From an uncultured Bacteroidia bacterium (GTDB taxonomy: Bacteria > Bacteroidota > Bacteroidia > Bacteroidales > F082), in NCBI GenBank assembly GCA_902799345.1, contig CADBZW010000011.1, forward strand, positions 1-64,000: DNA of 64,000 bases. Reading direction: 5' to 3'. The notes beneath the pieces were generated by a model. It saw only the letters and a list, made by a program, of their open reading frames with translations. It ran no database searches and had not been told where the DNA came from. Shown one piece after another: positions 1 through 14,591 of this stretch. The position numbers and the translations under genes are program-made. How positions within the stretch are numbered: the first letter of the stretch is position 1; every line of letters begins with the position of its first letter.

Positions 1-1208
1 CAATGGTCCTCGGAATAAGGGATGATGAAGCTTGACCAATTATGGGTGCGCATGATGCCGTTTCCTACCTCAAGGGTGCCGAAAGAGCCTCGTAATTGCA
101 TCGTATTACAGATTACGCCGATAGTATCGTACGCAACAAGTCTCTCGGAGGGATTGAAACCGAAATTGATGTTATCGTTGGGAATCACCAACCATTTGGA
201 TTCAGAAAAACGATCCCTCAATTCGGCATCTTCCTTGTCGCGGGCTTCAAGGCGGCTTCTTTCTTTGTTGAGATACTCTGTCAGATTATAACGCGCTGAT
301 AGTCTTTCTATTTCAGCATTGTCAACCGTGTCTGGAATGGCAATCTCCGTTGAAATCACATCGGGGATGGTTTTACCTGAACGGATGCCGTTTCTCCAAT
401 CGGGAATCATTTCATCTATCAGGAGTCCGTAGGCGGGGCCTGTGAGATAGGCGAACGAGTTGCCGAAGCCGCTACCGTCCATTCCTTTCGTAATGGCAGC
501 AGCGACCAATCCCTTTCTAATTGCTTCATTATCATTGTCCAAAGGCAACAGTTTGAAAGCAGTGTATTCCGCCATTCCTTCGTGACATTCAAATTGGTTT
601 TCGTTGCCGTTAGGGAACATCGTTTGACGATATTTGCGCACCGTCATCGCATCGCACAAACCTTCCGTTAGGTCTCTGGAATCGTTTTGCAGCAAGTCCT
701 TCAAAATGCCCAATTCGAGTTTCAGCAGCAGTTCTCCTTCCGTTTCGTCGAGGTGTTGGTTTGAAGACCCGCATGAAGGCAATCCGATTTCGTCTTGGAT
801 GCGGTGCAGACTCTCATGAATCAGAAGTTGCGTTGACGTCAGTAAATCTCGGCTGCCGTCCCATATTACGCAAGTCCAATCCTCGCCACAATAAGTTATG
901 GATGTGTTGGCGATAATGATGTCTTCAGGAAGTTGTCCGAAATAAAGGTTTCCTTTTTGGACGAGAGTGTTTTCCTTGTTTTGCTGATTGGCAACGAGAT
1001 TCCGTGTTTGAACATCGACAAACATCGTTGGGCCGTATAGTGTTTTGCCCCATAATTTGCCGTTATCCAAATCGGAAACTTTTTTCAGGTTCTCGAAACA
1101 TGGAGCGGCTTTCTGCATTGGATTGGATTTGGATTTGGATTGTGAACAGGAAGTGCTTGAAAAACAAAGGACAAGTACCAAAGCCAAACAGTAAAAAGTC
1201 TTTTTCAT
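1..1208 (-). CDS. HExxH-containing lipoprotein, C-terminus cut by window edge
   Basis: An open frame runs on the minus strand from an ATG at 1208 past the window start, giving about 402 visible residues. The N-terminus is a lipoprotein signal with a hydrophobic stretch and a lipobox ending SSTSC, so Cys21 would be lipidated and the protein exported to the envelope. Residues 131-135 read HESLH, a zinc-peptidase HExxH motif, and residues 209-215 read HEGMAEY, which resembles the second metal-binding helix of gluzincin-like peptidases. I infer a membrane-anchored metallopeptidase but I do not recognise the family. The substrate is unknown. No upstream promoter of the usual type was found, and the gene sits tail-away from the toxin-antitoxin pair with about 160 bp between. 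Confidence 0.7.
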   Translation of the reverse strand, partial: MKKTFYCLALVLVLCFSSTSCSQSKSKSNPMQKAAPCFENLKKVSDLDNGKLWGKTLYGPTMFVDVQTRNLVANQQNKENTLVQKGNLYFGQLPEDIIIANTSITYCGEDWTCVIWDGSRDLLTSTQLLIHESLHRIQDEIGLPSCGSSNQHLDETEGELLLKLELGILKDLLQNDSRDLTEGLCDAMTVRKYRQTMFPNGNENQFECHEGMAEYTAFKLLPLDNDNEAIRKGLVAAAITKGMDGSGFGNSFAYLTGPAYGLLIDEMIPDWRNGIRSGKTIPDVISTEIAIPDTVDNAEIERLSARYNLTEYLNKERSRLEARDKEDAELRDRFSESKWLVIPNDNINFGFNPSERLVAYDTIGVICNTMQLRGSFGTLEVGNGIMRTHNWSSFIIPYSEDH

Positions 1209-4949: not shown

Positions 4950-4957
4950 TACCTTTG
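4950..4957 (+). promoter_or_regulatory. -7 promoter box for uvrA
   Basis: TACCTTTG followed by C, 21 bp before the TTG start codon at 4979. Its position rules out the in-frame TTG at 4955 as the start. Confidence 0.7.
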
Positions 4958-4978
4958 CAAATTCAATTTTTCCGAACC

Positions 4979-7786
4979 TTGAAAGAGCAAACAACTTCTT
5001 ATATCACCATCCGCAACGCGAAGGTCAACAACCTGAAGAGCATCAGTTTGCAGATTCCGAAGAACAAGCTGGTGGTCATCACCGGCCTGTCGGGATCGGG
5101 CAAATCGTCCTTGGCGTTCGACACGCTTTATGCTGAAGGGCAACGCCGCTATGTGGAGAGCCTGAGTTCATACGCGCGACAGTTCATGGGCCGCCTCAAC
5201 AAGCCCGACGTGGAAAGCATCACGGGCCTTTCGCCCGCCATCGCCATCGAGCAGAAGGTGAACTCGCACAACCCGCGCTCCACCGTGGGCACCAGCACCG
5301 AAATATACGAATACCTGAAACTCCTCTACGCCCGCATCGGCAAGACCTACTCCCCAGCCTCGGGTAAGCTGGTCAAGAAGCACCAGGTGATGGATGTGGT
5401 GAACCATATCCTTGGCCTGCCGACGGGCAGCACGGCCTATATCGTCGCGCCGCTTCACCTGCCTGAAGGCCGCAGCCTCGAAGAGCACCTCAACATCCTC
5501 ATGCAGCAGGGCTTCTACCGTATATTATATAACGGCGAGATCATCAAAATCGAGGATTTCCTCGACCAGAAGAAAAAGGTCAGCGAGAAGAAGGTGAAGC
5601 TGCTCATCGACCGCATCAAGGTCAACGAGAGCATGGACGACGCCATCGGGCGCATCTCCGACTCGGTGCAGACCGCCTTCTACGAGGGCAAGGAGACCTG
5701 CCAGGTGATCAGCGAAGTCGACGGCGAGCGCAAGGAAGCCGACTTCTCGTCGCGTTTCGAGGCCGACGGCATCACCTTCGAGCCGCCTACAGCCAACATG
5801 TTCGCCTTCAACAATCCCTACGGCGCCTGTCCCACCTGTCAAGGCTTCGGCAGCGTCATCGGAATCGACCCGGACCTGGTGGTGCCCAACAAGAGCCTGT
5901 CCATCTACGAGAACGCCATCGCCTGCTGGCGCGGCGAGAAGATGAGCGAGTGGAAAGACGCCCTCATCCGCGTGGCCGACAAGGTGGGCATCCCCATCTT
6001 CAAGCCGTTCTACGAACTCACCGACGAACAGGTGAGCCTCCTCTGGACCGGCAACCAGTATTTCGAAGGCATCGTGGACTTCTTCAACTATGTTGAGACA
6101 CAGTCGTATAAGATACAATACCGCGTGATGCTGTCGCGCTACCGCGGCAAGACGGTCTGCCCCGAATGCCACGGCACACGCCTGCGCCGACAAGCGCAAT
6201 ATGTGAAGGTGGGCGGCAAGAGCATCACCGACCTCGTGCTGATGCCCTTGGACGAACTGAAGGCCTTCTTCGACCACCTCAAACTTGACGAGACCGACAG
6301 TAAGATCGCCTCTCGCCTGCTGGTGGAAATCAACAACCGCCTGGATTTCATCATCGAGGTTGGCTTGGGTTACCTGACCCTTAACCGACTCTCCAATACG
6401 CTCTCGGGCGGTGAGTCGCAGCGCATCAACCTCGCGACTTCGTTGGGCAGCAGCTTGGTCGGCTCCACCTATATCTTGGACGAGCCTAGCATCGGCTTGC
6501 ATTCCCGCGACACCGAACAACTCATCAAGGTGCTGAAACGCCTGCGCGACATCGGCAACACCGTCATCGTGGTGGAACATGACGAGGAGATTATCCGTGC
6601 CGCCGACTACATCATCGACATCGGGCCGATGGCGGGTGCCTTTGGCGGCGAAGTCGTGTTTGAGGGCGAGATTAAAGACCTCGTCCACTGCGAGAAGAGC
6701 CTCACCACGCAATACCTCACGGGCAAGATGAGCATCCCCGTGCCGCAACGTCGGCGCAAGAGCGCCAACGCCATCGTCATCAAAGGCGCGACGCAGAACA
6801 ACCTCAAGAACCTCACCGTGCGCTTCCCGCTCAACATGATGACCGTCATCACGGGCGTGAGCGGCTCTGGCAAGTCGACCTTGGTGAAGGACGTGCTTTA
6901 TCCTGCCATGAAACGACAGTTGGGCGAGAATGCCGAGAAATGCGGCAGTTACGGTGCCTTGGAAGGCGACCTGCGCCTCATCCAAGCCGTCGAGTTCATC
7001 GACCAAAACCCCATCGGCAAGTCATCGCGCTCCAACCCAGCCACTTACTTGAAGGCCTACGATGAGATTCGAACGCTATTCTCGGAGCAAAAACTGGCCA
7101 AGCTGCGCGGCATCAAGCCTGCCTTTTTCTCGTTCAACGTGCCGGGTGGTCGCTGCGAGGAATGTGAGGGCGAGGGCGTGCAAAAGATTGAGATGCAGTT
7201 CATGGCCGACGTCTACCTGCCTTGCGAGGCCTGCCACGGCACACGCTTCAAGGAAGAGGTCTTGGAAATCAAATACGACGGCAAGCACATCGCCGACATC
7301 CTTAACATGAGTATCGAAGAGGCCATCGACTTCTTCGAAGGCTCGTCGGAAAGCAATTCGGCTGTTGTGGGACGCATCTTGGCGAGGCTCAGGCCTTTGC
7401 GCGAAGTCGGTTTGGGTTACTTGAAGCTCGGACAGTCGTCGAGTTCGCTTTCGGGCGGCGAGGCGCAACGCGTCAAGTTGGCCTATTTCCTCATCAAGGG
7501 ACAGGTGGAGAAGCCCACGCTCTTCATCTTCGACGAGCCGACCACGGGATTGCATTTCCACGATGTGAACAAGCTGCTGGAGTCGTTCAACGCCTTGATT
7601 GCCAACGGCCACAGCGTCATCATCATCGAGCACAACATGGATGTCATCAAGTCGGCTGACTGGGTCATCGACCTGGGTCCCGAGAGCGGCAACAAGGGCG
7701 GTGAGATCGTTTTTGAAGGCACGCCTGAGGACTTAGTGAAGTGCAAGGCATCATATACGGGTAAAGCGTTGAAAAGCAAGTTGTAA
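4979..7786 (+). CDS. uvrA: Excinuclease ABC subunit A (UvrA)
   Basis: UvrA is the damage-recognition ATPase of nucleotide excision repair; it loads UvrB at lesions. The 935-residue protein has two ABC ATPase modules: Walker A TGLSGSGKSS at about 35-44 and TGVSGSGKST at about 624, with signature motifs LSGGESQR near 476 and LSGGEAQR near 823, each followed by a DEP Walker B. Zinc-binding CPTC, CPEC, CEEC and CEAC pairs are present. The first half of the zinc module seen in E. coli is missing (FSSRFEADGITFEPP in its place), as I recall for other Bacteroidota UvrA. The start is a TTG at 4979, giving the usual MKEQ-type N-terminus; the promoter position supports it. Confidence 0.95.
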   Translation: MKEQTTSYITIRNAKVNNLKSISLQIPKNKLVVITGLSGSGKSSLAFDTLYAEGQRRYVESLSSYARQFMGRLNKPDVESITGLSPAIAIEQKVNSHNPRSTVGTSTEIYEYLKLLYARIGKTYSPASGKLVKKHQVMDVVNHILGLPTGSTAYIVAPLHLPEGRSLEEHLNILMQQGFYRILYNGEIIKIEDFLDQKKKVSEKKVKLLIDRIKVNESMDDAIGRISDSVQTAFYEGKETCQVISEVDGERKEADFSSRFEADGITFEPPTANMFAFNNPYGACPTCQGFGSVIGIDPDLVVPNKSLSIYENAIACWRGEKMSEWKDALIRVADKVGIPIFKPFYELTDEQVSLLWTGNQYFEGIVDFFNYVETQSYKIQYRVMLSRYRGKTVCPECHGTRLRRQAQYVKVGGKSITDLVLMPLDELKAFFDHLKLDETDSKIASRLLVEINNRLDFIIEVGLGYLTLNRLSNTLSGGESQRINLATSLGSSLVGSTYILDEPSIGLHSRDTEQLIKVLKRLRDIGNTVIVVEHDEEIIRAADYIIDIGPMAGAFGGEVVFEGEIKDLVHCEKSLTTQYLTGKMSIPVPQRRRKSANAIVIKGATQNNLKNLTVRFPLNMMTVITGVSGSGKSTLVKDVLYPAMKRQLGENAEKCGSYGALEGDLRLIQAVEFIDQNPIGKSSRSNPATYLKAYDEIRTLFSEQKLAKLRGIKPAFFSFNVPGGRCEECEGEGVQKIEMQFMADVYLPCEACHGTRFKEEVLEIKYDGKHIADILNMSIEEAIDFFEGSSESNSAVVGRILARLRPLREVGLGYLKLGQSSSSLSGGEAQRVKLAYFLIKGQVEKPTLFIFDEPTTGLHFHDVNKLLESFNALIANGHSVIIIEHNMDVIKSADWVIDLGPESGNKGGEIVFEGTPEDLVKCKASYTGKALKSKL

Positions 7787-7792
7787 TTATGC

Positions 7793-7928
7793 CACAAAAC
7801 CGACAAAACATACAAAACCATCATCTGGCGTGGGCGGCTGCGCAACCGCGTCGCCGCCGGAAAGCCGCCGGTTGGCAGGCTTTCCACAACCAAGCTCAAA
7901 GGTTTTGTCGGGTTTTGCAAGTTTTGTG
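7793..7928. repeat. Dispersed ~137-bp element, copy A (threefold CAAAAC arms, GC-rich core)
   Basis: Three CAAAAC hexamers with a 9-bp period open the element and three GTTTTG hexamers close it in inverted orientation. The GC-rich core (about 7832-7885) contains GTCGCCGCCGGAAAGCCGC and is nearly identical to copy B at 22820-22956. It starts 6 bp after the uvrA stop and ends 16 bp before the next start codon. Confidence 0.8.
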
Positions 7929-7944
7929 ATAAAAAACAAGAGCA

Positions 7945-8469
7945 ATGAAACCATCAGAAATAAACCAACCCCTGAGTGAAAGGCAGCAGAAGGTAGTAGA
8001 CACCCTGCTCGGTCTCGGCATCGACTTCGACATCAAGTTCCACCCGCCGTTGGGTTCCATCGAGGAGTCGTTGGCTTACTGGGGCAAGTTCGAGGCCACG
8101 CACTGCAAGAACCTGTTTTTCAGGAACCACAAGGGCAACAAGCACTACCTCGTCATCTTCGAGTGCATGCACCAGATGGACATCCACGACCTTGAGCAGC
8201 GTCTGCACCAAGGCAAGTTGACCTTCGCCTCGGAGGCCCGCATGGAGAAATACCTCGGCCTGAAGCCCGGCAGCGTCTCCCCTTTCGGTCTCATCAACGA
8301 CGTGAACCACGAGGTACACCTCTTCATCGACAAAAACCTATTGAATGCCCCTCGCCTGAGCTTCCATCCCAATGACAACACGGGGACGGTGATTATTAGC
8401 CGCGAGGATTTTATAAAGTTTTTGGAGGCTATGGGGAATTCTTATGAGTTTATTGAGTTGTATGATTGA
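7945..8469 (+). CDS. YbaK/ProX-type aminoacyl-tRNA deacylase (prolyl-tRNA editing domain protein)
   Basis: The 174-residue protein matches the free-standing editing-domain family related to YbaK and PrdX/ProX. Such proteins hydrolyse mischarged tRNA, for example Ala-tRNA(Pro), in the cytoplasm. Family features visible are the N-terminal helix, FHPPLGSIEES, the CKNLFFRNHKG strand that holds the conserved lysine, and the glycine-rich LGLKPGSVSPFGL loop near residues 105-118, then the HPNDNTGTVIIS end. The exact tRNA substrate is an inference from the family. It lies downstream of uvrA but is separated by the dispersed element, and ends at a strong terminator. Confidence 0.85.
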   Translation: MKPSEINQPLSERQQKVVDTLLGLGIDFDIKFHPPLGSIEESLAYWGKFEATHCKNLFFRNHKGNKHYLVIFECMHQMDIHDLEQRLHQGKLTFASEARMEKYLGLKPGSVSPFGLINDVNHEVHLFIDKNLLNAPRLSFHPNDNTGTVIISREDFIKFLEAMGNSYEFIELYD

Positions 8470-8481
8470 TGGGTACGTAAG

Positions 8482-8520
8482 AAAAAGGGCATACCTGATC
8501 AAATAAGGTATGCCCTTTTT
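8482..8520. terminator. Strong bidirectional terminator
   Basis: AAAAAGGGCATACCT pairs perfectly with AGGTATGCCCTTTTT around a 9-nt loop. It lies between two convergent genes and serves both. Confidence 0.9.
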
Positions 8521-8531
8521 CAAAAATATAG

Positions 8532-9938
8532 TTAATCTTCTATACGCGTCACTTTGTTGCCATAGAAATAAACTCTCGTTTTGTAATCATAGCACCAAAC
8601 CTCACTTTGCCCAAGCGAAGTCGTTGTACGATATGTGTTTATTGGTGCCCCCCATGCGTCACGGCACATTTCTTTAGTCATACCGACAGCAACTTGTTTA
8701 TTAGCAACAAATTCTCCAAATGGTGAGCCGTATTTTGCAATCATGTGTTTTTTGTATTCAGCCTCTTTGTTTTCCTTTTCTTTTTGATCGCGTTGCTGTT
8801 GCAATTTCAATTCTTCTTTCACCTGCTCGTTCATCTTTTTTGCTCTTGCTTCTATGGTTTTCCAATTATTCTCTTCTATTATCAAGGCAATTTCATTATC
8901 ATAATAATCTGCTCTTTTATCATAGCCAACTTTCAACACAGGAATATCCATCATATTGTTGTACTTTTTTACAATAATTGACCAATCGCTTGGTCGTTGG
9001 TCCTGTGCAACTTTTACAATCTCCTTTGAAGAATATGTAAAATATATGCTATTCGCTTTCAACGCAAATGTCCCAGTTTTTTCCCCTTTTAATACTATAT
9101 AAAAACGACAATCTCTCAGAACGGCATCAACTACTTCAAATTTTTCGTCATCCAGTTTCACCAAGTCTCCCGTTATACCATCTTTTATTATCTCTACCTT
9201 TCTCACCATCTTCATATCCACCAATCCTCCTCCATCATATTTTTTTAGAACTACTTCTTTTCCAATAAAAGCAACAAGTTGATTATAGTATCTCAATAGT
9301 AATACATTGTCATCAAAATGCTGATCATCTACATAATAAATGGTATTATCATCATCCAAAGGCGTTAGCGCAATTTGATTTAAAAAATAACCTACTAGTT
9401 CATATGTTTCAAATCTATCTCCCGAAACAAACAAACGCTCTTTAAGTTTACGAATTGAACCATTATCATCATCATAATAACCCAAATCACTATATGACCT
9501 CATCCCAGCTGCAATTCTAATGGAATCAGCACCTTCTGTGCAAAACACATAACCAGAAATCACGTAATAGCCCGGAGGTATTACCGTCATTTCTGTTCCA
9601 ACATTGTTTTTTATGGTAAATGAATAGCTCCTATAATTTGTAGGCCGTTTTATCTCTTCACATATATAAACAGTGTCACCCGTTAAATTCACATATTTAT
9701 TTTCATATCCTAAATCAACGAAACTGGGGAACATTCTAGAAAAGCGTTCTATAGGCGAAACAGCAGGAAAGTATTTGTCGAAATCCACATTTCGATCATA
9801 ATAACTCTTTGATTCCATCAGTTTTTGGGAATAATCATCTCCTGCAATTTTAATTTGAGCTATTGCAGTATTGCCACTGCTTAGAAGTGTTACCAATAGA
9901 AAGGCAACAATCCATTTGGTTGTGTTTGTAGTTTTCAT
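8532..9938 (-). CDS. Secreted protein of unknown function with BamE/SmpA-like C-terminus
   Basis: The 468-residue protein begins with a signal peptide (hydrophobic residues about 8-27, cleavage likely after AIAQ or AIA). The long middle part is not recognisable to me. Residues about 355-400 are a charged, helical, possibly coiled segment rich in K, E and Q. The last 60 residues (VGMTKEMCRDAWGAP, then EVWCYDYKTRVYFYGNKV) look like the small outer-membrane lipoprotein A/BamE fold used in several envelope proteins. The sequence is clearly richer in A and T than the flanking genes. It follows the P-loop gene with 7 bp between, so both are probably co-transcribed. No function is assigned. Confidence 0.75.
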   Translation of the reverse strand: MKTTNTTKWIVAFLLVTLLSSGNTAIAQIKIAGDDYSQKLMESKSYYDRNVDFDKYFPAVSPIERFSRMFPSFVDLGYENKYVNLTGDTVYICEEIKRPTNYRSYSFTIKNNVGTEMTVIPPGYYVISGYVFCTEGADSIRIAAGMRSYSDLGYYDDDNGSIRKLKERLFVSGDRFETYELVGYFLNQIALTPLDDDNTIYYVDDQHFDDNVLLLRYYNQLVAFIGKEVVLKKYDGGGLVDMKMVRKVEIIKDGITGDLVKLDDEKFEVVDAVLRDCRFYIVLKGEKTGTFALKANSIYFTYSSKEIVKVAQDQRPSDWSIIVKKYNNMMDIPVLKVGYDKRADYYDNEIALIIEENNWKTIEARAKKMNEQVKEELKLQQQRDQKEKENKEAEYKKHMIAKYGSPFGEFVANKQVAVGMTKEMCRDAWGAPINTYRTTTSLGQSEVWCYDYKTRVYFYGNKVTRIED

Positions 9939-9945
9939 AAGACAT

Positions 9946-10398
9946 TTATTTGTTTAAAATTGTATTCACTATTTTCTCAACAATACCTTGTTTTATTTCC
10001 ATGACCCCGTCTTGGTCTTCAATATATTCTATCCAAAACTCGTTTTCTGGTTTCATAATATCGCTGTAGTTCTCTTTCAGCATTCTGTAAGTCGAACCTT
10101 CACGGTCATAAGCTCTTGCACATACGACCATGATATCGGGACGATACTCGTATAGTAACTCTTTCATTTCAGTGGCAACAGAATCATCGTCATCACCAGC
10201 TGAAATAATAGCTATTCGTTTTTTGCCAATGTCAATTACTGACCTAAAATCAATAACATCTTTCCATACTGGTAAATAATCTCCGTTCGTTTTTAATAGT
10301 CTTATTGCAGTACTGCGACCAACTAATGCATTGTGAAGCATTGTCGCAGTTGTCGTTTTGCCATCGCTTTGGCGGCCTCTGATAATAATTAATTCCAT
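9946..10398 (-). CDS. Small P-loop NTPase of unknown function
   Basis: The 150-residue protein starts with a strand and a Walker A motif, IIIRGRQSDGKTTT (residues about 4-17). A second strand RIAIISAGDDDDSV near residues 60-73 carries acidic residues, and YRPDIMVVCARAY follows, as in nucleotide-kinase or KAP/SIMIBI-type P-loop folds. No membrane segment is seen. It is AT-rich and placed 7 bp upstream of the secreted BamE-like gene, so the two form a putative operon. I do not recognise the family; a kinase or small GTPase-like role is only an inference. Confidence 0.7.
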   Translation of the reverse strand: MELIIIRGRQSDGKTTTATMLHNALVGRSTAIRLLKTNGDYLPVWKDVIDFRSVIDIGKKRIAIISAGDDDDSVATEMKELLYEYRPDIMVVCARAYDREGSTYRMLKENYSDIMKPENEFWIEYIEDQDGVMEIKQGIVEKIVNTILNK

Positions 10399-10829
10399 AT
10401 TGTTGGGTATTTATAAAATTGTCTTGTATATCAATTCTAATTATGAACATGAAGATATCTTTATAGGCAAAAAGAAAGGCGCAAATTCCTTCCGTTATGT
10501 ATTACCTTATTCACATGACAGGTGCTGGTTTAACCTTTGGAGCAAATAAGATACGGAATAATTCACGCCATTGCGTGAACCCTCTGCATCCCATTCCCGC
10601 TCCATAAAAGTTACCAGCTTTGTCATGTGGGAACAAGAGCATCAAGCTCAATATGTTATGTAAGTTATGTCTTCTTTATGCCATAGTTTTCCTTTTAAAT
10701 TCGGGTGTAAAATTACACAAATATTTCATTCCTCTGTAATCATTCTTCTTTTTTTATTTCCTCGCCATCCAAAAACAAATCCCCTTCTCCCTGTGCAATC
10801 TGTTTGGCGTTCATCGGTGTGCTTGTCAT
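10399..10829. other. Gene-poor interval with a short hairpin and possible gene remnants
   Basis: No convincing gene is present. On the minus strand two overlapping short frames lie at about 10507-10640: one of 39 codons beginning MTKLVTFMEREWDAEG and one of 43 codons beginning MLLFPHDKAGNFYGAG. Both could be decayed coding sequence. A perfect hairpin TTCACGC-CATT-GCGTGAA is at 10562-10579. The remainder is AT-rich and must contain the promoter of the P-loop gene, but I see no clear -7 box. Confidence 0.4.
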
Positions 10830-11603
10830 TTATTTCTCTTTATTTGAATCCTCCAATATCGTCGCAATCATTTGAGAATACTCCTGACCCATAGGCAATT
10901 CCATCTCCAAATGCAATGCTTGCCTAACGAAAAACGTGGTTTCTTTGGTCATGGGATTGAAGCCCTGGCGCTGTTCGTCACGGTAATACATGCCCACACC
11001 GCGTTTTTGCCACAAAGGGAGGTCGTTGTAGTTGATGCCCCGCTCAAACAGGATTTCGTTCTTTTCACCGTTTGATATGCCCGACATCCGTTTCTGTGCC
11101 TCATCAGCCGAAACACCTTCTTTCCGCAATGTCCAGTAACAGTATGAATTAAGCGAATTGCGGTGGGCATCCTCTTGCCGCCATCTGAAATAGTCAACCA
11201 CATTCTCGGCGGTTGGCAACGGAACAAGACGGCAGTCAAACACAGCAGCTTTACCCATTTGCATAGAGAACGCCACAGAAGCTTCGGCGGCGAGAATGGA
11301 TATCAACTTTCGTTCCTTCCTCCCGAAAGTATCATCTTTCAGATGGAACAACAGCGAGATTTCGTCACTTTGTGTGTAGCCATACACCATGCGAAAACCG
11401 CAGTCCATCAGGTGTTTGGTGGTTTCAATCATGGCATCACGAAACTTGGTGTCGAAAGGCTTCTCCAAGTTCCATTCCTTTTTGGTAAGCCGCGTAAAGC
11501 CATGACCATCAAGGCGTGCCACGACATATATTCCTTCCAGCATTGTCCTGTCAAGCGACTGCTCGAAACGACTCATCTGTTTGTCAAGAGTATCGAAGTC
11601 CAT
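10830..11603 (-). CDS. Thg1-like protein (3'-5' RNA polymerase, tRNA(His) guanylyltransferase family)
   Basis: The family adds nucleotides to the 5' end of RNA in the 3'-5' direction; bacterial Thg1-like proteins repair 5'-truncated tRNAs (established for the family). The 257-residue protein has the palm motif ARLDGHGFTRLTK with Asp32 and YGYTQSDEISLLF with Asp80-Glu81, matching the two metal-binding sites, and the conserved DAHRNSLNSYCYWTLR segment. I chose the ATG at 11603: homologs as I recall them begin here, and GGGAG lies 6 nt upstream. An in-frame ATG at 11651 overlaps the upstream stop codon as ATGA and would add 16 residues. It is the second gene of an operon with an AlbA_2 protein. 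Confidence 0.9.
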   Translation of the reverse strand: MDFDTLDKQMSRFEQSLDRTMLEGIYVVARLDGHGFTRLTKKEWNLEKPFDTKFRDAMIETTKHLMDCGFRMVYGYTQSDEISLLFHLKDDTFGRKERKLISILAAEASVAFSMQMGKAAVFDCRLVPLPTAENVVDYFRWRQEDAHRNSLNSYCYWTLRKEGVSADEAQKRMSGISNGEKNEILFERGINYNDLPLWQKRGVGMYYRDEQRQGFNPMTKETTFFVRQALHLEMELPMGQEYSQMIATILEDSNKEK

Positions 11604-11647
11604 ATTATTCTCCCGTTTGCTTATGTTGGATTTATTCTGCTTGGCGT

Positions 11648-13036
11648 TCATGGTTTCTCAATCACTTCCCAATGGCCGCCTTTTTGTGGGCCTACACGTC
11701 GAATGCGCCCTGTTGCTTGTAGATTATGCAAATGTTTCGCGATACCGCTAAGTGCCATATCAAGTTCTTTCGCTATGGCCCGCGAAGTGATTCGAGGATT
11801 GCTCAAAATAAGTTGAATGATTTTGTCTTTTGTGTTTTCTGCACCACTTTCTGTACCACTTTCTGTACCACTTTCTGTTTCCTGACCACTTTTCTGCGAT
11901 GTGCCATTATTAATCGCCACAAATCGCTCCCTTGGGATGGTCGCCAACATGCCGCCACGCACCTGCTCGAATGTGGGGAATTGCAACTTCTCACTCTCAA
12001 ACGCCTTGCGTATCTTCTCATAACCTCGCCCCCACGCCTCAATGAAGCCCGCCAGATAAAACACCTTGGCAATAAGCATGTTGCGCGGACGGGAGTCGTG
12101 CTCGGCCATCAAGGTTTCAACAGTAAAGCCTTCAGGCAATGTGCCAATGTTCCACAGCTCAACACGGTCGTCCCAAACCCGCATCTGAATGAAAGTGCCT
12201 GTGTAGTCTTTATGTACGATGGCGTTACAGATGATTTCACGCAAGCCATCCTCGGGAATTTCAAGAGGTTCCTTGCGAAACAATCCCTCGTAGTGTATGG
12301 GCGAAACAAGATATTTGCTTCTCAACGTGGAAATCACCCTGTCGGGCATCATAATCAGCGGACAGATAATATTGTCTTGGATGATCAGATTGTCGCGACT
12401 CACCTGAAAACGCCCTATTCTGAAAATGGCACTCATGTTCCATCGTTCAATGTCCTTGCCAAAAAGAAGCAGTGCAGCCATCGTCAGATGTCCCTGTTCA
12501 TCAATGAGTTTCAAGTTGCGAAGGATTTTCTCTGTGCTGTCATTGCGTGTTTCCGGTTCAATACGTTGGGCCTCTATCGCGTGTCGCATGAAATAGTCAA
12601 CGGCTTCGCGATCAATGTCCTCAATAGTCGCATTGGGCTGAATCACAGCATCCCACGACAAGTTCATCTTCCGCAACAAGAAAGTTTGCAGCGCACTGCC
12701 GTTCATCTCTTGTAGTGTAGTACCTGAACGGTAATAGTACTTGCCACGATAGGAAACGGGCTGCTCCGAAGCGGAAACGCTGATGGATAGATATTCCTTA
12801 CCATCTTCTGCCAACAAATTGACAGTGGCAAGCAACCCCATTGTCTGATTGATGAGATTGGGCAACTTCTCAAGCAGTTGCTTGGCGTTTTCAATGCCAA
12901 CCACATTTCCTTTGTCATCCATACCAATATACAACGTGCCGCCTTGCGCATTGGCAAAGCCACACAATTCGGCAAGAAAATCATCGCGCCATTGCCGCTT
13001 GAATTCTATGTTTTGGGTTTCCTTCATAGGAGTCAT
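11648..13036 (-). CDS. Schlafen-type AlbA_2 domain protein with HATPase-like middle and winged-helix tail
   Basis: The 462-residue protein has three parts. Residues about 5-120 form an AlbA_2 (Schlafen-core) domain with E6-x4-E11-F-K13 and FANAQGGTLYIGMDD. About 180-370 is the HATPase_c_4-like region with LREIICNAIVHKDYTG. About 400-462 is a winged helix (ITSRAIAKELDMALSGIAKHL). Between the last two lies a low-complexity linker with repeated ESGT. In bacteria such proteins are annotated as ATP-binding regulators; in mammalian Schlafens the same core with paired glutamates is an RNase acting on tRNA or rRNA. The start (13036, or 13027) is set by a TAGTTTTG box 12 bp upstream. The stop overlaps the possible Thg1-like start at 11651. 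Confidence 0.85.
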   Translation of the reverse strand: MTPMKETQNIEFKRQWRDDFLAELCGFANAQGGTLYIGMDDKGNVVGIENAKQLLEKLPNLINQTMGLLATVNLLAEDGKEYLSISVSASEQPVSYRGKYYYRSGTTLQEMNGSALQTFLLRKMNLSWDAVIQPNATIEDIDREAVDYFMRHAIEAQRIEPETRNDSTEKILRNLKLIDEQGHLTMAALLLFGKDIERWNMSAIFRIGRFQVSRDNLIIQDNIICPLIMMPDRVISTLRSKYLVSPIHYEGLFRKEPLEIPEDGLREIICNAIVHKDYTGTFIQMRVWDDRVELWNIGTLPEGFTVETLMAEHDSRPRNMLIAKVFYLAGFIEAWGRGYEKIRKAFESEKLQFPTFEQVRGGMLATIPRERFVAINNGTSQKSGQETESGTESGTESGAENTKDKIIQLILSNPRITSRAIAKELDMALSGIAKHLHNLQATGRIRRVGPQKGGHWEVIEKP

Positions 13037-13048
13037 ATTTGCAAATTG

Positions 13049-13056
13049 CAAAACTA
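13049..13056 (-). promoter_or_regulatory. -7 promoter box for the AlbA_2/Thg1 operon
   Basis: TAGTTTTG followed by C on the minus strand, 12 bp before the ATG at 13036, so the leader is only a few bases long. Confidence 0.55.
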
Positions 13057-13157
13057 CAAATTTTCCTCCATCCATTGCCAAATGATGCTTTTTTCCATAA
13101 TTTTGCACTTGAATTGCAATCTTAAATCTTGAATCTTGATTTTTAAATCCTAAATCC

Positions 13158-13904
13158 ATGAATACCGAAAAAATCAAACAAGCCGCCGAGATCCTCTCCA
13201 AAGCGAAGAACATCGTGGGCTTCACCGGCGCAGGCACTTCCGCCGAGAGCGGCATCCCGCCTTTCCGTGGCGAGGGCGGTATCTGGAACCAGTATGACCC
13301 TAACTCCTTGGACATCGACTTCTACTACCGCCACACCAAGGAGTCGTGGAAGATCATCCGTGAGGTGTTCTATAACTTCTTCAGCAACAAGGACATCAAA
13401 CCCAATCCTGGGCATCTTATCCTGGCCAAATGGGAGAAGGAAGGCCGGCTGAGCAGCGTCATCACGCAGAACATCGATGACCTGCACACCGTGGCGGGTA
13501 ACACGGTTGTGTATGAGTTCCATGGCAACATGTCGCGCTTCGTGTGCACAAAATGCGGCCACAAGGTCGACGCCAAGAGCCTGACACTCACCGAGGAACC
13601 GCCCCGTTGCCCCCAATGCGGAGGACTGATGAAGCCCGACTTCATCTTCTTTGGCGAAGGTATCCCTGAAGACGCTTACTATGGTTCAGTGCGTGCTGCC
13701 GAGAACTGCGACGCTTTTGTCATCATCGGCACTTCGGGACAGGTCAGTCCGGCCAATATGATTCCTGGCATCGCCAAACGCAACGGTGCCAAGATCATCG
13801 AAATCAATATGGAGCCTTCGACTTATACGAACTATATCACGGATATCTATCTTGAAGGCAAATCCGGCGAGATCCTGCCAGCAATCGATGCTTTGATGAA
13901 ATAG
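13158..13904 (+). CDS. cobB: NAD-dependent protein deacylase, sirtuin (CobB/SIR2 family)
   Basis: Sirtuins remove acyl groups from protein lysines using NAD+. This 248-residue, cytoplasmic-type protein has the full set of motifs: NAD-binding GAGTSAESGIPPFRG at residues 24-38, TQNIDDLH near 110, catalytic His about 122 in FHGN, four zinc cysteines (CTKC near 130 and CPQC about 20 residues later), GTSGQVSPA and the terminal NAD-binding EINMEPS. The length is normal for bacterial CobB. It is transcribed away from the AlbA_2 operon across a 121-bp AT-rich interval containing repeated ATCTTGA/AAATC pieces. The symbol is a family assignment; substrate preference (acetyl or succinyl) was not determined. 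Confidence 0.93.
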   Translation: MNTEKIKQAAEILSKAKNIVGFTGAGTSAESGIPPFRGEGGIWNQYDPNSLDIDFYYRHTKESWKIIREVFYNFFSNKDIKPNPGHLILAKWEKEGRLSSVITQNIDDLHTVAGNTVVYEFHGNMSRFVCTKCGHKVDAKSLTLTEEPPRCPQCGGLMKPDFIFFGEGIPEDAYYGSVRAAENCDAFVIIGTSGQVSPANMIPGIAKRNGAKIIEINMEPSTYTNYITDIYLEGKSGEILPAIDALMK

Positions 13905-13919
13905 TAGGTGTAATATCCA

Positions 13920-14030
13920 GGTTTTTGAAGGCATGTCATACCGAACGGAGCAGCCCATAGATACGCTCCCTCCTTCGTCGGTCGGTATGACATGGGCTGC
14001 GGAGCGAGTGTATCTATGCCTTCAAAAACC
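13920..14030. repeat. 111-bp inverted-repeat element between convergent genes
   Basis: GGTTTTTGAAGGCAT at 13920-13934 pairs exactly with ATGCCTTCAAAAACC at 14016-14030, and inner arms (ATGTCATACCGA with TCGGTATGACAT; CATAGATACGCTCC with a GGAGCG...ATCTATG stretch) extend the pairing. The right arm includes the stop codon of the UDG-like gene. It may serve as terminator for both genes. Confidence 0.7.
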
Positions 14031-14591
14031 ACCAAACACTGCCTCAAACATCCTGCGATAAGCTTCAACCTTTTTGTCAAATGACAAAGGATAAGCACGT
14101 GAAGATGATGGCAATCTATATAGTGTCAATCCTTCCCTAAGGAGAATCTGATTATTCGGTGAAGGAACCGAATTGGTTTTGAAATATGCACAGACTTCGG
14201 TGGTGGCTTTTTCGCCCGTCGTGGCGATAGTGTGGCATTGAGGCATCTGTTTCAGTAGGGCATCAATATCGGTATGCTCAACAATCTCCAAAAAGGCATC
14301 CGAGGCATTGTCTTTCAGCCTATTGACTGCCGTAGCCGTATCGAACAGTGCTATGCCTTTCTCGTTTAGAAGCGCAATGATTTCGTTCATTTTGAAGCAT
14401 TTGCGATCATTGTCCACGAAATGGTTCTTGTCGCCGAACCAGATCTGCCCTTCGATGCGCCAGTGGTCGTTGATGAAGTTGGGGTAGAAAAAGTCCATGC
14501 ACCAGCGCTTCTTGGGCGGCGGGAAACTGCCGAGGAATAGCACTTTGGCGTTTGATGGTAGGAAAGGTTTTAGTGGGTGTTTTTCTATCAT
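14022..14591 (-). CDS. Uracil-DNA glycosylase superfamily protein
   Basis: The 189-residue protein has the superfamily's active-site strand KVLFLGSFPPPKKRW near residues 16-30 and a late ATTGEKATTEV strand followed by LPSSSRAY near 160, equivalent to the SPSxxR/HPSP region of UDG enzymes. Such enzymes excise uracil or other damaged bases from DNA in base-excision repair. Substrate specificity cannot be read here. It is the last gene of an operon with the M64 peptidase and GH29 fucosidase, 8 bp after the fucosidase stop. The terminal residues and stop lie in an inverted repeat, which may mean that the repeat inserted at and rebuilt the 3' end (inference). Confidence 0.82.
   Translation of the reverse strand: MIEKHPLKPFLPSNAKVLFLGSFPPPKKRWCMDFFYPNFINDHWRIEGQIWFGDKNHFVDNDRKCFKMNEIIALLNEKGIALFDTATAVNRLKDNASDAFLEIVEHTDIDALLKQMPQCHTIATTGEKATTEVCAYFKTNSVPSPNNQILLREGLTLYRLPSSSRAYPLSFDKKVEAYRRMFEAVFGGF

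What the first reader, a model, noticed from the sequence alone, without database searches (positions are those of the whole stretch)
10830..13056. Schlafen-type AlbA_2 protein in an operon with a Thg1-like 3'-5' tRNA polymerase
Seen: the AlbA_2 gene (E6-x4-E11-F-K13, FANAQGG) ends at 11648-11650, overlapping a possible Thg1-like start at 11651, and one promoter serves both. Known: mammalian Schlafen cores with paired glutamates are RNases acting on tRNA/rRNA, and bacterial Thg1-like proteins rebuild truncated tRNA 5' ends. Inference: an RNA-damaging ATP-dependent regulator paired with a repair enzyme, possibly a defence or toxin/repair module. The wHTH tail instead allows a plain transcription regulator of the Thg1 gene. 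I do not know a description of this pairing.
Basis: partly seen in the sequence, partly recalled or inferred. Interest (0 to 1): 0.72.

Follow-up and report, generated by a model that had tools for sequence, protein, structure and literature searches.

The report
Schlafen and Thg1 genes sharing hotspot
In a Bacteroidales genome a Schlafen-like gene and a Thg1-like RNA 5'-end polymerase gene touch each other, but relatives carry either one without the other at the same chromosomal hotspot, so the two are likely separate swapped-in genes rather than a dedicated damage-and-repair pair.

Summary
In detail: an AlbA_2-HATPase-wHTH gene (13036-11648, minus) overlaps a Thg1-like ORF (11651-10830) by ATGA. 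The interpretation mostly fails. Of 87 Thg1 loci (window included), 3 have AlbA_2 beside Thg1, all in one genus; a polynucleotide-kinase-like gene is directly upstream in 60, an association published in 2010 (PMC2904730). The pair lies in an interchangeable slot between a cobB-type sirtuin and tRNA_edit-uvrA genes. In 21 of 25 loci picked by a shared 3' tail the slot holds BRO/DinD-like, AlbA_2, AAA-ATPase and/or Thg1 genes; the tail is the coding end of the BRO/DinD-like gene. AlbA_2 without Thg1 (three genomes) and Thg1 without AlbA_2 (one) both occur there. A 16-nt repeat of the tail flanks Thg1; the overlapping ATG belongs to it, and Thg1's usual start is 11603. Against L006, Thg1 plus the last ~100 nt of AlbA_2 are about 99-100% identical, the AlbA_2 body 80-99%. 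AlbA_2 keeps the Schlafen E-x4-E-x-K signature and fold, so an RNase is plausible; this architecture is already described (PMC12839542). A newly formed functional pair is not excluded.

The parts
11648..13036 (-). AlbA_2 (Schlafen-like) - HATPase_c_4 - wHTH protein, 462 aa; orthologues in L005 and L095 start at MKETQ (13027)
12701..13021 (-). SLFN_AlbA_2 domain with E6-x4-E11-F-K13 and D40/D41
11951..12199 (-). HATPase_c_4 (GHKL-type ATP-binding) domain, residues 280-362
   Evidence: histidine-kinase-type fold matches
11699..11824 (-). C-terminal winged helix (HTH_24), residues 405-446
10830..11603 (-). Thg1-like protein from its usual start MDFDTLDKQM (257 aa); metal residues D48, D96, E97 in the numbering of the 273-aa ORF
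11604..11651 (-). 16-codon N-terminal extension MNAKQNKSNISKRENN; its first 16 nt are the left copy of the direct repeat, which makes the ATGA overlap
11636..11651 (-). left copy of 16-nt direct repeat (ATGAACGCCAAGCAGA here, one mismatch; 16 of 16 in L005 and L006)
10755..10814 (-). conserved 3' tail of the BRO/DinD-like gene (ATGAACGCCAAACAGATTGC...), right copy of the repeat at 10814-10799
13049..13056 (-). TAGTTTTG, promoter -7-like element upstream of the AlbA_2 gene (consensus recalled)
13158..13904 (+). cobB-type sirtuin, left flank of the hotspot
14022..14591 (-). DNA-deoxyinosine-glycosylase-like protein (38 bits, below the NCBIfam cut-off of 80), outer left flank
8532..10398 (-). right part of the slot: 150-aa P-loop-like protein and 468-aa protein, no Pfam family over cut-off
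7945..8469 (+). tRNA_edit (YbaK/ProX-like) gene, right flank
4955..7786 (+). uvrA, outer right flank

Best explanation
The AlbA_2 (Schlafen-like) gene and the Thg1-like gene are two separate cargo genes of one interchangeable slot in a chromosomal accessory-gene hotspot, likely co-transcribed but likely acting independently. SHOWN: the slot lies between a cobB sirtuin and a tRNA_edit-uvrA pair; its occupants vary among relatives (BRO/DinD-like, AlbA_2, AAA-ATPase_like with a PD-(D/E)XK domain, Thg1, combinations); in the loci examined, which were picked by that feature, they sit in front of the same tail, the 3' end of the BRO/DinD-like gene. SHOWN: Thg1 is bracketed by a 16-nt repeat of that tail, and three relatives have AlbA_2 with one tail copy and no Thg1. 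INFERRED: Thg1 entered behind AlbA_2 by recombination in the tail, leaving the repeat and so the ATGA overlap, then spread by homologous exchange through the AlbA_2 3' end and the tail. INFERRED: AlbA_2 is a Schlafen-type, metal-dependent RNase controlled by its ATP-binding and winged-helix parts, in keeping with other hotspot cargo (methylases, GmrSD type, RhuM, PIN). INFERRED: Thg1 rebuilds 5'-truncated tRNAs or similar RNAs, without the polynucleotide kinase that stands beside most of its relatives.
For: AlbA_2 near Thg1 in 3 of 87 loci, window included. Kinase directly upstream of Thg1 in 60 of 87, and upstream in 7 more outside my gap limits. The kinase was not found in any of six same-genus genomes with Thg1 (one of them, G018, with a Thg1 fragment only), while 4 of 4 positive-control genomes rang; RlaP not found in the window's genome. 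Thg1 in 6 of 99 genus genomes, own included; AlbA_2 orthologues (88% or more identical) in 6 of 99; both in 3. Tail pattern in 26 of 99 genomes, reversed-pattern control 0; in 3 of the 26 only chance matches, leaving 23. 25 hotspot loci: sirtuin on the left in 17, tRNA_edit on the right in 21, both in 15; where tRNA_edit is missing (4) the contig ends first. NAKQIA is in the last 45 residues of 112 of the 120 best BRO/DinD-like homologues. Repeat: 16 nt with one mismatch; longest in 1000 shuffles 15, and 16 or more in 0 of 993 random window pairs. Identity window vs L006: 98.7-100% over 11750-10851, 80-99% over the AlbA_2 body, 81% then 62% downstream; dS 0.013 for Thg1 vs 0.277 for AlbA_2. 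Schlafen signature and fold.
Against: Three species kept the AlbA_2-Thg1 pair, and the exchanged block includes the end of AlbA_2, so some benefit of the pair is not excluded. Against L005 the identity contrast is weak (95-100% over Thg1, 86-98% over AlbA_2). Thg1 is under purifying selection (dN/dS about 0.03 against L005 and L007). The 25 loci were chosen by the tail, so they cannot show how often the slot lacks it; in G439 no tail is seen before the contig end. In 7 of 25 the left side holds other genes than sirtuin (in an eighth, L166, the contig ends there). The named relatives L005-L007 are MAGs or uncultured isolates' bins and G-handle genomes are fragmented; G456 and G408 each show two left flanks (L157/L158; L176/L177), so strain mixture may blur some arrangements. 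In G439, G408 and G457 the contig ends at or soon after Thg1, so the right flank is not seen there. Deletion of Thg1 between the repeats in G456, G028 and G016 cannot be told from absence.
Confidence: 0.8

Rival explanations
1. Dedicated RNA damage/repair module: the Schlafen-type RNase cuts tRNA during phage attack or stress and the co-transcribed Thg1 rebuilds 5' ends afterwards. It would need no kinase, because a metal-dependent cut is expected (recalled chemistry) to leave 5'-phosphates.
For: ATGA overlap and one promoter-like element; E-E-K signature intact; the kinase partner not found in any of six Thg1 genomes of this genus; pair kept in three species.
Against: Either gene occurs without the other at the same site; adjacency in 3 of 87 loci only; the overlap is made by a duplicated tail fragment and is absent in L005. 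Human SLFN11 cuts 10 nt from the tRNA 3' end (PMC9482658, passages), damage that a 5'-end polymerase would not mend.
Confidence: 0.1
2. AlbA_2 is an ATP-responsive transcription regulator of its own operon, Thg1 included, acting through its winged helix.
For: C-terminal wHTH and upstream position; two named relatives are called 'putative DNA binding domain-containing protein' or the like (P0135, P0215).
Against: AlbA_2 occurs in the slot without Thg1; the RNase residues E6, E11, K13 are the same in 63 of 63 homologues, which a pure regulator would not need; the architecture is described as an RNase linked to BREX (PMC12839542, passages).
Confidence: 0.07
3. Thg1 and the other cargo are exchanged by a dedicated site-specific recombination at the BRO tail core (TGAACGCCAAACAGA) rather than by ordinary homologous recombination.
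For: Three unrelated genes end right at this core: AlbA_2 (overlapping it), AAA-ATPase (9 nt before it, L156, L167) and Thg1 (15 nt before it); 16-nt repeat on both sides of Thg1; two loci carry two tails, 2.4 and 3.8 kb apart (L155, L156).
Against: No integrase or recombinase among the 10 cargo proteins scanned (other cargo not scanned); in L155 the second tail comes with a second full tRNA_edit copy, as in ordinary tandem duplication (not so in L156, which has one full copy between its tails); the exchange block fits homologous recombination.
Confidence: 0.2

Closest known systems
Bacterial Thg1-like proteins (TLPs) in polynucleotide kinase-Thg1 gene neighbourhoods (PMC2904730, abstract and passages seen; TLP repair activity PMC6471195, passages)
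   Same: Same Thg1/Thg1C domains and catalytic residues; relatives 75-85% identical (e.g. L008, L011, L013, L017) stand behind the kinase, L017 also with RlaP, WYL and TROVE genes
   Different: Here kinase and RlaP were not found and Thg1 stands behind AlbA_2 in a hotspot
[quoted passage not shown] it cites a preprint on bacterial Schlafens in anti-phage defence, not held)
   Same: Same three-part architecture, E-E-K signature and Schlafen fold
   Different: No BREX family among the 8 window proteins scanned with Pfam or the 5 scanned with PADLOC; neighbour is Thg1; activity untested
DIP2311 (PDB 3lmm), AlbA_2-HATPase-type protein
   Different: 21% identity over 346 aligned residues, rmsd 15.3 (domains probably rotated); deposited as an uncharacterized protein
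Defence-type chromosomal hotspots with exchangeable cargo (general concept, recalled)
   Same: Recurring flanks, variable cargo including methylases, GmrSD-type and RhuM genes
   Different: Cargo abuts a remnant 3' end of a BRO/DinD-like gene

Membership tests
Thg1-like protein (TLP) | Thg1 and Thg1C domains | tested here: met
   109 and 67.6 bits, over cut-offs
Thg1-like protein (TLP) | three metal-binding acidic residues (first motif D, then D-E) | tested here: met
   D48, D96, E97 in 13 of 13, in register with solved Thg1 3otb; that these are the metal residues is recalled
Thg1-like protein (TLP) | 3'-5' addition / 5'-truncated tRNA repair activity | not testable with these tools
   reported for other TLPs (PMC6471195, passages)
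Kinase-Thg1 RNA-repair operon | polynucleotide-kinase-like gene beside Thg1 | tested here: not met
   not upstream in the window; not found in G000 or five other Thg1 genomes of the genus, 4 of 4 controls rang
Kinase-Thg1 RNA-repair operon | RlaP nucleotidyltransferase in the genome (optional member) | tested here: not met
   no PF10127 match in G000 (90.8% complete); control rings in 3 of 14 genomes
Schlafen-type RNase (SLFN-HATPase-wHTH) | SLFN_AlbA_2 domain with Schlafen fold | tested here: met
Schlafen-type RNase (SLFN-HATPase-wHTH) | essential E, E, K of SLFN11 (E209, E214, K216) | tested here: met
   E6, E11, K13; human numbering inferred from 9erd range 204..327 for model residues 1..97
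Schlafen-type RNase (SLFN-HATPase-wHTH) | RNase activity | not testable with these tools
   none
Dedicated AlbA_2-Thg1 toxin/repair module | conserved adjacency across lineages | tested here: not met
   3 of 87 Thg1 loci, one genus
Dedicated AlbA_2-Thg1 toxin/repair module | obligate co-occurrence | tested here: not met
   AlbA_2 orthologue without a Thg1 match in G028, G016, G456 (77-88% complete, but the locus itself is seen without it); Thg1 without AlbA_2 in the slot in G439
Accessory-gene hotspot | same flanks, different cargo in related genomes | tested here: met
   25 loci, sirtuin left in 17, tRNA_edit right in 21, both in 15

The most novel reading that the evidence does not exclude
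The 3' end of a BRO/DinD-like gene is a genuine gene-exchange site in this Bacteroidales genus: unrelated single genes of conflict type (Schlafen-like RNase, AAA-ATPase with PD-(D/E)XK, BRO, Thg1 RNA polymerase) are swapped precisely at a fixed 16-nt core, and in three species this has brought a Schlafen RNase and a kinase-free RNA 5'-end rebuilder into one transcript, a young RNA-damage/repair pair caught while forming.
Probability: 0.15. Interest if true: 0.7.

Novelty: new member of a known kind. Interest (0 to 1): 0.33.

Why it matters
It shows how a convincing operon (4-nt overlap, one promoter, plausible story) can arise by cargo exchange at a hotspot, and gives the test that separates the two: empty-site relatives and a repeat made of the neighbour's tail. 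It also marks a compact hotspot between cobB and tRNA_edit-uvrA in a Bacteroidales genus whose cargo includes defence-type genes, and a set of Thg1 enzymes without their usual kinase partner, useful for asking which 5' ends they rebuild.

Tried and rejected
Gene-cassette array (integron-like): suggested by two tails 2.4 and 3.8 kb apart in G029 (L155) and G443 (L156). Not favoured: in L155 the second tail comes with a second full tRNA_edit copy, i.e. tandem duplication; in L156 only one full copy is seen, so the idea is not excluded there.

Tail as a mobile element of its own: not favoured; in 112 of the 120 best BRO/DinD-like homologues NAKQIA lies within the last 45 residues, so it is that gene's own end.

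Thg1 as essential tRNA-His G-1 enzyme: unlikely, since Thg1 is found in only 6 of 99 genus genomes (inference; the tRNA-His gene itself was not examined). No tRNA and no Rfam match over gathering score in the window.

Promoter claim: only a consensus match.

PADLOC gave for AlbA_2 only two weak hits to Argonaute-system profiles (38.5 and 24.5 bits), not pursued. NCBIfam gave nothing for Thg1 and one hit far below cut-off for AlbA_2.

Literature: searches Thg1+Schlafen (2 papers, neither on this pairing: the Thg1 mention in PMC9482658 is a docking template; the other seen in the listing only), Thg1-like+bacteria+operon+RNA repair, RlaP+Thg1 (PMC7824862 passage seen), Schlafen+bacterial+anti-phage+tRNA, tRNA repair+Thg1+bacterial, AlbA_2+Schlafen+ATPase+transcriptional regulator, Thg1+bacterial+gene neighborhood+RNA repair, AlbA_2+Bacteroides (none), SLFN11 residues, defense island+hotspot+Bacteroidales+uvrA: no description of the AlbA_2-Thg1 pair or of this hotspot was seen in these listings.
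Full report
OBSERVATION. On the minus strand an AlbA_2-HATPase_c_4-wHTH gene (462 aa, 13036-11648) is followed by a Thg1/Thg1C gene (273-aa ORF, 11651-10830), overlapping as ATGA. E6-x4-E11-F-K13 and FANAQGG are as stated. A promoter-like TAnnTTTG lies at 13056-13049 (consensus recalled). The sirtuin at 13158 is transcribed the other way.

IS THE PAIR CONSERVED? Thg1 is sparse (own genome included in each count): 4 of 60 relatives, 4 of 295 of the class, 6 of 99 of the genus, one of these (G018) a fragment. Eighty named loci from many phyla (the best 80 of 210 confirmed) plus 7 others, the window's own among them, make 87 Thg1 loci; a few look like duplicates (e.g. L002 and L012; L007 is G439), the seven extra ones hold only about 1.5 kb on each side, and several of the 80 are cut short by contig ends. 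AlbA_2 was sought in the held DNA by phmmer and by a profile of its domain: 3 of 87, namely the window, L005 and L006. A kinase profile (seeded from four such genes; the L017 member is AAA_33 by Pfam) lies directly upstream of Thg1 in 60 of 87 and upstream outside my gap limits in 7 more. RlaP-, WYL- and TROVE-like clusters occur near Thg1 in 9, 10 and 6 loci, checked by Pfam for L017 only. The kinase association was published in 2010 (PMC2904730, abstract and passages). In the genus of the window the kinase was found in 0 of 6 Thg1 genomes, while 4 of 4 positive controls rang, and RlaP was not found in the window's genome. So this Thg1 looks like an orphan of a known repair operon.

AlbA_2 genes are common: 4 in the window's genome, 29 in that of L007, and at least one in 41 of 49 Thg1-bearing genomes searched (the genomes of L054-L084 were not searched). 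Orthologues of the window's AlbA_2 (88% or more identical) are in 6 of 99 genus genomes: G000, G408 (=L005), G457 (=L006), G028, G016 and G456; Thg1 is found in the first three only.

EMPTY SITES AND REPEAT. In G028, G016 and G456 the AlbA_2 stop is followed by ATGAACGCCAAACAGATTGC, the sequence that in the window follows Thg1. The window, L005 and L006 have ATGAACGCCAAACAGA (one mismatch in the window's left copy) on both sides of Thg1. A shared stretch of 16 nt with at most one mismatch was not reached in 1000 shuffles (longest 15) or in 993 random window pairs (longest 15). The overlapping ATG belongs to this repeat; the other 12 aligned Thg1 proteins start at MDFD or its equivalent (ten) or later (two), i.e. 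11603 in the window; a few further listed proteins have other short extensions. In L005 a partly duplicated AlbA_2 end separates the genes by about 130 nt.

HOTSPOT. The 20-nt start of the tail (two mismatches allowed) is in 26 of 99 genus genomes, with none for the reversed pattern; in three of them only chance matches, leaving 23. Stretches around 24 tail loci from 22 genomes were fetched; with the window that is 25 loci. They were picked by the tail, so they say nothing about slots without it. Sirtuin lies on the left in 17, tRNA_edit on the right in 21, both in 15. In the 4 without tRNA_edit the contig ends first. Of the 8 without sirtuin one is cut by its contig end and 7 have other genes there. 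In front of the tail stand, by my reading: BRO/DinD-like gene in 11 (in pieces in L160 and L172, cut in L166); AlbA_2 alone in 3 (L158, L170, and L178 with one in-frame stop); AAA-ATPase followed by an AlbA_2 lacking its middle in 2 (L164, L171); AAA-ATPase alone in 2 (L156, L167); AlbA_2+Thg1 in 2 (window, L175); AAA+AlbA_2+Thg1 in 1 (L176); other or remnant in 4 (L155, L159, L174, L177). L179 (G439, no tail seen before the contig end) has sirtuin-AAA-Thg1. The tail is the C-terminal end of the BRO/DinD-like protein: NAKQIA is within the last 45 residues in 112 of the 120 best homologues. Scanned slot proteins include a C5 methylase, an N6 methylase, a GmrSD-type protein, RhuM, a PIN protein, an HhH-GPD protein and AAA_14-DUF4143; one of the 10 (L162:4073-4402) had no Pfam match. 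G456 and G408 each gave two left flanks, which may be strain mixture.

EXCHANGE. Window vs L006: 98.7-100% identity from 11750 to 10851, against 80-99% across the AlbA_2 body, 88-93% across 13850-13101 (mostly sirtuin), and 81% then 62% beyond Thg1. Window vs L005 shows a weaker contrast: 95-100% over Thg1, 86-98% over AlbA_2. Synonymous distance 0.013 for Thg1 vs 0.277 for AlbA_2 in the L006 pair (the AlbA_2 value rests on this one pair). I infer that Thg1 with the last ~100 nt of AlbA_2 was exchanged recently, apart from the rest of AlbA_2. dN/dS of Thg1 is about 0.03 against L005 and L007, i.e. purifying selection (0.39 for the L006 pair, with 2 synonymous and 3 other changes, too few to judge).

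VERDICT. Real overlap, mostly wrong inference: two cargo genes side by side in a hotspot. A functional pair newly formed is not excluded, but nothing here requires it.

Noticed in passing
window 4955-14591; L155-L178: Accessory-gene hotspot between a cobB sirtuin and tRNA_edit-uvrA in a Bacteroidales genus, with cargo abutting the 3' end of a BRO/DinD-like gene; includes methylases, GmrSD-type, RhuM, PIN and DUF4143 genes.
   Followed up: partly
L155 (tails at 12641 and 10206, minus) and L156 (tails at 10722 and 6908, minus): Two tails in one locus: in L155 with two full tRNA_edit copies, in L156 with one between the tails; partial extra tRNA_edit copies in L158, L166, L168, L174 and L178.
   Followed up: partly
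L164:6121-8115 and L171:6784-8577: AAA-ATPase_like gene 3 nt in front of an AlbA_2 gene that lacks its middle (its start joined to the winged-helix end); in L005 an AAA gene of the same cluster stands 3 nt before a full AlbA_2.
   Followed up: partly
L017:1546-7517: TROVE (Ro60-like) gene divergent from kinase-Thg1-RlaP-WYL in a Bacteroidales contig, a full candidate RNA-repair locus.
   Followed up: no
window 9946-10398: 150-aa protein with a P-loop-like start (GRQSDGKTTT) and no Pfam family over cut-off, downstream of Thg1 in the same hotspot.
   Followed up: no
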